Shown here: positions 60,639 through 63,216 of the stretch, one piece after another | Layout of the letters: every line of letters starts with the position of its first letter | How positions within the stretch are numbered: position 1 is the stretch's first letter | From: Epilithonimonas vandammei | GTDB lineage: Bacteria > Bacteroidota > Bacteroidia > Flavobacteriales > Weeksellaceae | DNA length: 64,000 nucleotides | Assembly: GCF_003860525.1 (NCBI RefSeq) | Contig: NZ_CP034161.1 | Location: forward strand, 1,240,001 to 1,304,000 | Direction: 5' to 3' | Notes under the pieces: model-generated | Database searches by the model: none | What the model saw: only the letters and a program-made list of their open reading frames with translations | Told to the model about the DNA's origin: nothing | Translations under genes and position numbers: made by a program

Positions 60639-60772
60639 TATTTGGTTAATAACTAAGGTGTTATTAAAGAAAATGGTTTCTCTAACATTAATTTTATAGC
60701 TACAAAATGAAATATTTGTTAGAATGTTATTAATCCTATTTAATGACAGAAGATGAATCTATGGTGTAACTT

Positions 60773-60784
60773 GCAGCCCGACTT
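60773..60784 (+). repeat. REP-like repeat, copy 3, left fragment
   Basis: GCAGCCCGACTT is the left end of the REP-like repeat and is separated from its right part (62090-62161) by the IS110-family element. Confidence 0.65.
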
Positions 60785-60863
60785 ATCTCCACTTTTTATT
60801 TTTTAATTTGAATCGATGAACATTCTATGTTATATTCCAAAATTTTTAGGTTCATTTTTTTAG

Positions 60864-61835
60864 TTATTTTGCAAAATCCAGTTGATATTTGTTTTTAGAT
60901 TTTATTATTCCAAAGGCTTGTCGTAGCAGTTTGTTGCAAACTGCTATTAAAGCTAATTTTTTACATTTCCCTTTTTCCAAAATCCTTTCATATAAGGCTT
61001 TGCATTGCGGATTGCATTTTACCGCACTCCAAGAGCAGATGAATAAGACACTTCGGATATATTCTTTGGTTGTTCGACATTTGCCGATTGTTATTTTTTT
61101 GTTTCCGGAATGATACATTCTTGGAGCAACTCCAAAGTATTTACTTACCGATTTTGAGTGTTCAAAACTCTTGAAATGGTTCGTTGCAACCAGCAATAAG
61201 AGCGAGGTTTTCTCTCCAATTCCATTAATGCTCTTGAGCAGAGTTTTATTCTCTTGCAATTCCTCATCTTCCAGTTTTGGCAATCGTTTCAAAAGTTTTT
61301 CTATCTCTTTTTGCAAATTATTAATCAATGTTTCATAATGTTTTACCACCTCTTTATTGAGTCTTGCTTTTTGGCGCAGAGATTTTAATTTTAATGAAAA
61401 TCTCGCTTTCTCCTGTTCCAAATCCTGCAAAAGATTGAGTTCCTGTTCTAAAAATTCAAGATTCTCTTTTTTGGGTTCAAAAGGACAAATTTCCATTTTC
61501 TCTCCAAAATCCCGGATTAATTTAGCATCTTCATCATCAGTTTTACTGATTAAGTTTCTTACTTCTGCATATTTTTTAATCGTCAAAGGATTTACCTGAT
61601 AAACATCAAATCCCTTTGAATAAGCATAGTAAAGGATTTTGCTACTGTAAGAACCGGTGGCTTCTACTACAATTTTATAATCCTTTTGGTCTAACTTTTT
61701 CAGACAGCTTAAAATATCTTTTTTCAAATTGCCAATATTCATTACGATTTCTTGGTTTTGTGCGTTTTTGAAACTTATGGTCAAAAACTTTGAGCTTACG
61801 TCAATTCCTACTACTTTCTTTTCTAAATTTACCAT
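60864..61835 (-). CDS. IS110-family DEDD recombinase (transposase)
   Basis: This 323-residue recombinase has an N-terminal RuvC-like DEDD domain with D12 (VGIDVSS), E58 (VVEATGS), and D100/D103 in SKTDDEDAKLI. The C-terminal domain, with LLKSINGIGEKTSLLLLVA and GVAPRMYHSGNKKI, holds the candidate catalytic serine. A coiled coil joins the two (residues about 120-190). IS110 enzymes integrate a circular element with the help of an element-encoded bridge RNA that pairs with donor and target. The frame is intact, so the element may be active. Confidence 0.95.
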   Translation of the reverse strand: MVNLEKKVVGIDVSSKFLTISFKNAQNQEIVMNIGNLKKDILSCLKKLDQKDYKIVVEATGSYSSKILYYAYSKGFDVYQVNPLTIKKYAEVRNLISKTDDEDAKLIRDFGEKMEICPFEPKKENLEFLEQELNLLQDLEQEKARFSLKLKSLRQKARLNKEVVKHYETLINNLQKEIEKLLKRLPKLEDEELQENKTLLKSINGIGEKTSLLLLVATNHFKSFEHSKSVSKYFGVAPRMYHSGNKKITIGKCRTTKEYIRSVLFICSWSAVKCNPQCKALYERILEKGKCKKLALIAVCNKLLRQAFGIIKSKNKYQLDFAK

Positions 61836-61863
61836 ACAATTACTTTAAATGTATTGGAATTTT

Positions 61864-62005
61864 GTTTTCTTATGAACCAGTGTGATAAGAGTTTTTCTCT
61901 TTATAAACAGCATTCTATTCGGTTTCCAGAAAACAAGCAGTAGGGACTTATTGTTCGACACGATATTTTTGTATCAACCACTTCTCTGACTTTTTCCTAC
62001 TGCTT
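61864..62005 (-). ncRNA. Candidate IS110 bridge RNA (two stem-loops upstream of the transposase)
   Basis: In transposase orientation, the first stem-loop is closed by AAGCAGTAGG/CCTACTGCTT (62005-61996 with 61944-61935) and contains an inner GATA/TATC hairpin. The second is closed by GTTTTCT/AGAAAAC (61934-61928 with 61870-61864) and has an inner AAGAG/CTCTT hairpin (61901-61887). Two internal-loop stem-loops in the 5' noncoding end match the known bridge RNA layout. Short matches exist (AAGUC and AGUGG in the first loop resemble the target), but they are too short to prove guide pairing. Confidence 0.5.
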
Positions 62006-62089
62006 TTTCCAATATGTTTGTAAATGTAATTTTTTAACTTTTTATCTAAACTATTATTAAAAAGCAAACTTATCACCACTACGTTAGGT

Positions 62090-62161
62090 TTGAGTGGAAA
62101 TCCTTTTTACGCAACGAAGTGAAGTGGAAAGATTGGGAGCGGAAGGCGGTTAAAGCTGCCC
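62090..62161 (+). repeat. REP-like repeat, copy 3, right fragment
   Basis: It begins TTGAGTGGAAATCC, contains GGAGCGGAAGGCGG (62136-62149) and ends GCTGCCC (62155-62161), which corresponds to the right block and end of copies 1 and 2. The middle is partly self-complementary (AATC near 62101, GATT at 62131). Confidence 0.7.
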
Positions 62162-62216
62162 AAATAATTTAGCTAAATGTATCAATTGCTAGAGTTTCGA
62201 CATCCAAACAAATCCT

Positions 62217-62241: not shown

Positions 62242-63216
62242 ATGAGCAAACCGATAACTGAGTTCATAGAAAAATATTATTTGCACTTCAATGCGGCTGC
62301 GTTGGTAGATGCTTCTAAAGGATATGTTGCACATCTTAAAGATGGCGGAAAAATGATGATTACGCTTGCAGGGGCAATGTCAACCGCAGAATTAGGAAAA
62401 ATCTTGGCAGAGATGATTCGTCAGGATAAGGTCGATTTTATTTCTTGTACAGGTGCAAACCTTGAAGAAGATTTGATGAATCTTGTAGCGCATTCTCACT
62501 ACGAAAGAGTTCCCCATTACAGAGATCTTACGCCACAAGAAGAGTGGGCACTTTTGGAACGAGGTCTGAACAGAGTAACAGATACTTGTATCCCTGAGGA
62601 AGAAGCGTTTAGAAGATTGCAAAAACATATCTACGAGATTTGGAAAGATGCGGATGATAAGGGAGAGCGTTATTTCCCACACGAATATATGTACAAAATG
62701 ATTCTCTCCGGTGTTCTCGAGCAGTATTATGAGATCCCAAGAGAAAATTCTTGGATGATTGCAGCAGCAGAGAAGAATTTACCAATCGTGGTTCCAGGAT
62801 GGGAAGATTCTACAATGGGTAATATTTTCGCATCTTATTGTATAAAAGGAGATCTGAAATTCTCTACAATGAAATCGGGAATCGAGTATATGGCTTATTT
62901 GGCTGATTGGTACACGAAAAACTCAGGTGGAAAAGGCGTTGGTTTCTTCCAAGTGGGCGGTGGAATCGCTGGTGATTTCCCAATCTGTGTGGTTCCAATG
63001 CTTTATCAAGATATGGAAATGCACGATATTCCTTTCTGGAGTTATTTCTGTCAGATTTCTGATTCTACAACATCTTACGGTTCTTATTCCGGAGCTGTTC
63101 CGAATGAGAAAATCACTTGGGGTAAATTAGATATTACGACTCCAAAATATATTGTGGAAAGTGATGCAACAATCTGTGCACCATTGATGTTTAGTTATAT
63201 TCTTGAAAATTCTTAA
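62242..63216 (+). CDS. Deoxyhypusine synthase family protein
   Basis: This 324-residue NAD-dependent enzyme of the deoxyhypusine/homospermidine synthase family has MMITLAGAMSTAELGKILAEMI, DFISCTGANLEEDLMNLVAH, and VGFFQVGGGIAGDFPICVVPML. The region of the active-site lysine, NEKITWGKLDI (about residue 290), keeps the WGK motif. In eukaryotes and archaea the enzyme moves the aminobutyl group of spermidine to eIF5A; bacteria lack eIF5A, so bacterial members are thought to act in polyamine metabolism. No other polyamine gene is in the window. Confidence 0.9.
   Translation: MSKPITEFIEKYYLHFNAAALVDASKGYVAHLKDGGKMMITLAGAMSTAELGKILAEMIRQDKVDFISCTGANLEEDLMNLVAHSHYERVPHYRDLTPQEEWALLERGLNRVTDTCIPEEEAFRRLQKHIYEIWKDADDKGERYFPHEYMYKMILSGVLEQYYEIPRENSWMIAAAEKNLPIVVPGWEDSTMGNIFASYCIKGDLKFSTMKSGIEYMAYLADWYTKNSGGKGVGFFQVGGGIAGDFPICVVPMLYQDMEMHDIPFWSYFCQISDSTTSYGSYSGAVPNEKITWGKLDITTPKYIVESDATICAPLMFSYILENS

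What the first reader, a model, noticed from the sequence alone, without database searches (positions are those of the whole stretch)
61836..62089. Candidate bridge RNA in the 5' noncoding end of the IS110 element
The 254-base upstream end holds two consecutive stem-loops, each with a closing stem (AAGCAGTAGG/CCTACTGCTT and GTTTTCT/AGAAAAC), an internal loop and an apical hairpin. This is the two-loop layout known for IS621-type bridge RNAs. Short strings resembling target (AAGUC, AGUGG) and element ends (CUUAUCAC) occur in the loops.
Basis: partly seen in the sequence, partly recalled or inferred. Interest (0 to 1): 0.65.

Follow-up and report, generated by a model that had tools for sequence, protein, structure and literature searches.

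The report
Bridge RNA of an IS110 element
The stretch encodes what looks like a guide RNA that lets a bacterial jumping gene choose where it lands by base-pairing; it is a convincing new example of a system described in 2024, with a host-type start signal that appears complete only when the element is cut out as a circle.

Summary
The finding holds. The element (window 60822-62074, minus strand, 1,253 bp between GT cores) is present in seven identical copies in its genome. An unoccupied target in the same genome (AACGTAGTG-GT-TCGACGAAGTC) fixes the core as GT. The upstream noncoding end then reads as an IS110 bridge RNA: loop 1 carries AGAAGTGGT (left target plus core) and TGTCGAAC (reverse complement of core plus right target); loop 2 carries ATAGAATG (right element end) and CTTATCAC (reverse complement of core plus left end). 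Across 12 distinct homologous elements the guides change with target and donor (right target guide 82 of 96 matches against 47.4 on permutation, P<=5e-5), and in 35 of 35 positions inside a subgroup whose targets vary. Joining the element's ends, as in the excised circle, gives TTTG-N20-TAAGTTTG, a Bacteroidota -33/-7 promoter-like pair, in 13 of 13 close elements; inserted left flanks have TTTG 17-23 nt upstream in 1 of 25. Expression and activity were not tested. Verdict: a new member of a known kind; the junction motif and an outer closing helix are modest additions.

The parts
60822..62074 (-). IS110-family element between the two GT cores (1,253 bp)
   Evidence: coding region and both noncoding ends identical in 7 of 7 copies; ends set by comparison with unoccupied target L021
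60864..61835 (-). recombinase (transposase) gene, 323 aa; D12, E58, D100, D103 and S243 invariant in 8 aligned sequences, the query among them
   Evidence: PF01548 and PF02371 above cutoff; NF033542 'IS110 family RNA-guided transposase' 151.5 bits, cutoff 140; alignment
62075..62076 (-). left core GT
60820..60821 (-). right core GT
61850..62060 (-). predicted bridge RNA; 5' end inferred from the -7-like box plus 4-5 nt, 3' end inferred from the outer helix
   Evidence: fold, box, spacing rule from PMC6847099 section 14; both ends are inference
62007..62014 (-). outer helix P0, 5' strand TATTGGAA
   Evidence: moderate support
61852..61859 (-). outer helix P0, 3' strand TTCCAATA
   Evidence: moderate support
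61996..62005 (-). target-binding loop closing stem P1, 5' strand
61977..61985 (-). left target guide AGAAGTGGT (left target plus core; pairs with the bottom strand)
   Evidence: 7-8 of 9 matches at each of 7 insertion sites; covariation
61953..61960 (-). right target guide TGTCGAAC (reverse complement of core plus right target)
   Evidence: 5-8 of 8 matches at the 7 sites, 5 at the window copy; covariation
61935..61944 (-). target-binding loop closing stem P1, 3' strand
61928..61934 (-). donor-binding loop closing stem P2, 5' strand
61911..61918 (-). left donor guide ATAGAATG (right element end plus first core base)
61882..61889 (-). right donor guide CTTATCAC (reverse complement of GT-GATAAG)
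61864..61870 (-). donor-binding loop closing stem P2, 3' strand
62065..62072 (-). TAAGTTTG, -7-like box at the left element tip
60838..60841 (-). TTTG, -33-like box near the right element end; 20 nt from the -7-like box in the joined circle

Best explanation
The region encodes the bridge RNA of an IS110-group insertion sequence. The RNA has a target-binding loop and a donor-binding loop. [quoted passage not shown] Bound by the recombinase it brings the circular element (joined ends ...ATAGAAT-GT-GATAAG...) to the genomic target AACGNAGTG-GT-TCGACG, which lies in what looks like a dispersed repeat, and the enzyme exchanges strands at the GT core. Excision joins the right end to the left end and thereby completes a promoter-like pair (TTTG-N20-TAAGTTTG) that would transcribe the bridge RNA and the recombinase gene. 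Shown here: ends, core, guide matches, covariation, stems, junction motif. Inferred: transcription, RNA ends, binding, recombination.
For: Seven identical copies and three unoccupied targets with 0, 1 and 2 mismatches to the consensus, 0 in the reversed control. Permutation tests on 12 distinct elements: right target guide 82/96 vs 47.4, P<=5e-5 (without the core 58/72 vs 29.3, P=1e-4); left target guide 40/84 vs 25.6, P=5.5e-4; left donor guide 101/108 vs 91.5, P=3.5e-4; right donor guide 89/96 vs 78.6, P=2e-4. Within seven AT-core elements the right target guide tracks CGGGG/CCGGG/CAGGG in 35 of 35 positions, 24 of 5,040 permutations as good. RNAalifold, with no structure given, paired the element tip with the right donor guide, with both-sided changes (AU/GC) at two pairs. 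Stem P1 keeps pairing through several both-sided changes and P3 through AT to TA at one pair. Fold z -3.59. IS110 recombinase. Layout and strand rules as in PMC11208160, sections 6 and 7.
Against: The window copy's own right target matches only 5 of 8. In the AT-core relatives the left target guide fits better one base out of register with the query group and then mismatches the first core base in most of them (by eye). Within the five GT-core elements alone the right target guide does no better than 24 of 120 permutations. The twelve elements are related, so the permutation P values overstate independence. No Rfam family matches. The base after the right donor guide pairs with its own donor in 12 of 12 elements, whereas in IS621 such pairing dramatically reduced recombination (PMC11208158, passages).
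Confidence: 0.95

Rival explanations
1. The stem-loops are only a 5' leader or attenuator that regulates translation of the transposase, with chance similarity to the element ends and target.
For: The region lies directly upstream of the gene and the outer helix ends 16 nt before the start codon (coordinates).
Against: Loop bases covary with target and donor DNA; 0 of 20,000 shuffles hold three of the four guide words. A leader role in addition is not excluded.
Confidence: 0.03
2. The complementarity reflects repeats near the element ends that the recombinase protein reads as DNA, not an RNA guide.
For: The donor guides copy the element ends, as subterminal repeats would.
Against: The target guides copy the genomic target, which is not part of the element, and change with it between elements; stems enclose them.
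Confidence: 0.02

Closest known systems
IS621 bridge RNA (IS110 group), PMC11208160 / PMC11208158
   Same: Bridge RNA in the long left end; two internal loops in the order target then donor; 5' side pairs with the bottom strand, 3' side with the top strand, core included; insertion into repeated extragenic sequence reported for IS110s; circle junction forms a promoter; IS110 recombinase with RuvC-like and Tnp domains.
   Different: Core GT instead of CT; an outer helix encloses both loops (not mentioned in the sections and passages read, where a 5' stem-loop precedes the two loops); junction motif resembles the Bacteroidota -33/-7 pair rather than a sigma70 promoter; the base after the right donor guide pairs with its own donor in 12 of 12 elements.
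seekRNA of ISEc21 (IS110 type), PMC11187229 (passages)
   Same: Upstream noncoding region gives a guide RNA needed for transposition; circle junction makes a promoter.
   Different: Different target and promoter type; sequences were not compared here.
ISCro4 transposase (PDB 9t56)
   Same: Recombinase homologue, E 1.2e-23.
   Different: Its RNA was not compared here.

Membership tests
IS110 family, IS110 group | PF01548 (DEDD) and PF02371 domains | tested here: met
IS110 family, IS110 group | left noncoding end longer than right | tested here: met
   239 nt left of the gene against 42 nt right of the stop codon, from the coordinates
IS110 family, IS110 group | short core present at both junctions and in the empty target | tested here: met
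   GT is the only overlap of left junction, right junction and empty site L021
bridge RNA | two stem-loops with internal loops | tested here: met
bridge RNA | loop 1 pairs with target, loop 2 with donor, with covariation | tested here: met
bridge RNA | 5' stem-loop | tested here: inconclusive
   single-sequence folds show a hairpin there in several AT-core relatives; none in the fold of window 61845-62060
bridge RNA | promoter-like motif completed at the circle junction | tested here: met
   TTTG-N20-TAAGTTTG in 13 of 13 close elements; this is a motif, activity was not tested, and G at -9 is unusual
bridge RNA | RNA is made and binds the recombinase | not testable with these tools
   needs RNA and protein work
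IS1111 group | long right end that encodes the RNA | tested here: not met
   right end is 42 nt long
IS1111 group | subterminal inverted repeats of 7-17 bp | not tested
   no inverted-repeat search of the ends was run

The most novel reading that the evidence does not exclude
IS110 elements of the Bacteroidia share a split promoter adapted to their hosts: a -33-like TTTG near the right end and a -7-like TAnnTTTG at the left tip, 20 nt apart only in the excised circle, so that bridge RNA and recombinase are switched on by excision and off by insertion. The -7 box overlaps the donor-guide pairing site, tying transcription to donor identity.
Probability: 0.5. Interest if true: 0.5.

Novelty: new member of a known kind. 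Interest (0 to 1): 0.38.

Why it matters
It gives a fully read guide set (target, donor, core) for a small, apparently recently active bridge-recombination system from Bacteroidota, a phylum whose promoters differ from those of E. coli, together with a natural series of relatives whose guides and targets differ. Such a series helps to learn reprogramming rules and to build genome tools for this phylum.

Tried and rejected
The protein scan of genome contigs found no relative (27 pattern stretches, none confirmed); the DNA pattern scan of the donor loop did (7 stretches), six of which look by eye like elements already found and one (L101) was new. The first empty-site pattern gave 3 matches against 2 in the reversed control, so by itself it is weak; two of its three sites (L019, L020) lack the TTC after the core. 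The stricter pattern gave 3 against 0. In one search some loci were read on the wrong strand; one search corrects it. MAFFT misaligned the junction of the two stems and one row was on the wrong strand; the RNAalifold consensus on such an alignment lacks P0, P2 and P3. Pair counts were therefore made on anchored stems in a script, with P0 and P1 strands chosen by best fit, which favours pairing. P0 against controls: own flanks 6.75 bp mean, cross-group flanks 5.04 (24 of 70 reach 6 bp), shuffled flanks 3.27 (5.5% reach 6 bp); support is moderate. In one search two printed coordinates (apical 5' strand, P3 3' strand) are first-match errors of the script and are not used. Rfam gave nothing.

Rows dropped: own2 (L008) was left out of the guide tests because its left and right cores differ; fragments (for example L027, L047, L053) and the more distant relatives were not put into the guide tests; G018 has no left flank (contig end), so its left target counted as mismatches; G157 has its transposase in two overlapping frames but was kept. 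G488 was not put into; read by eye its junction gives TTTG-N17-TAAGTTTA, which does not fit N20.

That the Bacteroidota-type junction promoter was not found in print rests only (1, 0 and 0 papers; the one listed was not opened), in a library that lacks most subscription journals. One search (recent bridge-recombinase papers) returned 0; some searches were seen as listings, with the papers named below opened from them. Papers: PMC11208160 outline, sections 6, 7, 12 and passages; PMC11208158, PMC11187229, PMC9723704, PMC2483708 passages; PMC6847099 section 14 and passages; the rest listings only.

Full report
What was checked. The finding is the 5' noncoding end of an IS110 element on the minus strand. 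The two stems are present as described. The 216-nt stretch 61845-62060 folds at -41.8 kcal/mol against a mean of -28.8 for shuffles, z -3.59, 0 of 200 as good.

Ends and core. The genome holds eight matches to the transposase: seven at 100% and one at 53% identity. The seven copies share an identical coding region and both noncoding ends. A first pattern search of the same genome found an unoccupied target, AAACCTAACGTAGTGGTTCGACGAAGTC (L021), among 3 matches against 2 in the reversed control; a stricter search found three unoccupied sites with 0, 1 and 2 mismatches, 0 in the control. Left junction AACGNAGTGGTGATAAG, right junction ACATAGAATGTTCGACG and the empty site L021 overlap only in GT, so the core is GT and the element is 60822-62074. 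L021 lies between GTCATTCCGAAGG and CCTACGGAATGAC arms, and copy L007 and site L019 have a similar left arm; I infer that the target is part of a dispersed repeat. Whether these sites are intergenic was not tested. IS110 elements aiming at repetitive extragenic palindromes are known (PMC11208160, passages).

Guides. [quoted passage not shown] The same reading here gives AGAAGTGGT and TGTCGAAC in loop 1, ATAGAATG and CTTATCAC in loop 2. Over the seven insertion sites (L001 to L007) the left target guide matches 7, 7, 8, 8, 8, 8, 7 of 9 and the right target guide 7, 5, 7, 7, 6, 8, 7 of 8; the 5 is the window copy.

Covariation. Relatives came from searches of 23 genomes of the genus (7 with a match), 296 of the family (94) and 395 of the class (81), own genome included each time, and 7 named stretches from a pattern scan (Kaistella and Chryseobacterium records). 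Twelve distinct elements were compared; one of them (G018) has no left flank. Right target guide 82 of 96 against a permutation mean of 47.4 (P<=5e-5), left target guide 40 of 84 against 25.6 (P=5.5e-4), left donor guide 101 of 108 against 91.5 (P=3.5e-4), right donor guide 89 of 96 against 78.6 (P=2e-4). Shifting the left guide register by one gave 39 of 84 against 32.3, P=0.043; by eye the AT-core group fits the shifted register better and the GT-core group the unshifted one. Inside the AT-core group (7 elements) the right guide follows three different targets in 35 of 35 positions, 24 of 5,040 permutations as good. Inside the GT-core group (5 elements) the left guide gives 38 of 45 against a mean of 21.8, 2 of 120 permutations as good, while the right guide gives 33 of 40 against 30.6, 24 of 120.

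Structure. With stems anchored by script, P1 pairs in 11-12 of 12 elements at nine of ten positions (5 of 12 at the tenth) with up to four pair types at a position, P2 in 12 of 12 with only one-sided changes, P3 in 12 of 12 with AT in 5 and TA in 7 at one pair. P0 has 5-10 bp in the 12 elements but was chosen by best fit; it exceeds cross-group and shuffled controls (6.75 against 5.04 and 3.27 bp). RNAalifold on an imperfect MAFFT alignment found 26 pairs, 5 with both-sided changes; two of the five join the element tip to the right donor guide, that is, guide-donor pairing, two lie in P1 and one just inside it.

Junction promoter. The Bacteroidota consensus is TTTG at -33 and TAnnTTTG at -7 (PMC2483708, PMC6847099; passages). 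Joining right and left ends gives TTTG, 20 nt, TAAGTTTG in 13 of 13 close elements, own2 included; in the inserted state TTTG lies 17-23 nt upstream in 1 of 25 flanks and TTG in 4 of 25. The 13 are related, so they are not independent. In ten more distant families (23-33% identity; ends assigned by me by eye, when I already knew the motif) TTTG stands at exactly 20 nt in 6, CTTG in 2 (G059 and G100b, which resemble each other), neither in 2 (G174, G677); the -7 box is an exact TAnnTTTG in 6 of 10; both boxes are exact at N20 in 3 of 10. An eleventh, G488, does not fit (by eye). Against an active promoter: F. johnsoniae promoters virtually never have G at -10 or -9, and a -33 motif is much less evident there (PMC6847099 section 14); TAAGTTTG has G at -9, and its TAAG part is also fixed by donor-guide pairing. 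That a circle junction makes a promoter for the guide RNA is known; the host-type version with fixed spacing is the part I did not find in print.

Handshake positions. The base 3' of the right donor guide pairs with the base left of the core in its own donor in 12 of 12 elements (A-T in 3, G-C in 9), and forms a Watson-Crick pair with the target base in 6 of the 11 that have a left flank. The base 3' of the right target guide pairs with the donor base in 5 of 12, the GT-core group, and in none of the AT-core group. In IS621 the handshake bases pair with the non-cognate DNA and cognate pairing at the donor loop reduced recombination (PMC11208158, passages). This is unexplained; the right donor guide may simply be one base longer in this group.

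Verdict. By sequence evidence almost certainly a bridge RNA, a new member of a known kind, with a conserved junction motif worth an experiment.

Noticed in passing
L108, L135-L138 (G488:C1:110260-139539): Five IS110 copies lie within about 28 kb; upstream sequence with TAACG-like words and GTTA at the right junction resembles integron attC sites (impression by eye; IS elements in attC sites are recalled for IS1111).
   Followed up: no
L008 (G000:C1:228334-229299): The genome's second, 53% identical element has core GT at the left and AT at the right junction; by eye its left flank does not match its left guide while the right flank matches 8 of 8. A rearranged left side or an unusual insertion.
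   Followed up: partly
window 60770-60819: The right flank of the window copy (TTCATCGATTCAAA...) differs from the other six and resembles sequence further down the flank of copy L006 (by eye); either a poorer target or a later rearrangement.
   Followed up: partly
window 62242-63216, strand +: The neighbouring gene is a deoxyhypusine-synthase-family protein (PF01916, E 1.3e-40), 165 nt from the element's left core.
   Followed up: no
window 62078-62186 and 60771-60821: The flanks of the element are dispersed repeats: 43 matches listed (a scored subset of candidates), 8 of them element copies, the other 35 mostly to these flanks.
   Followed up: partly
L001, L022, L030-L037, L061, L101: The base after the right donor guide pairs with the cognate donor in 12 of 12 elements, unlike the IS621 handshake rule.
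   Followed up: partly
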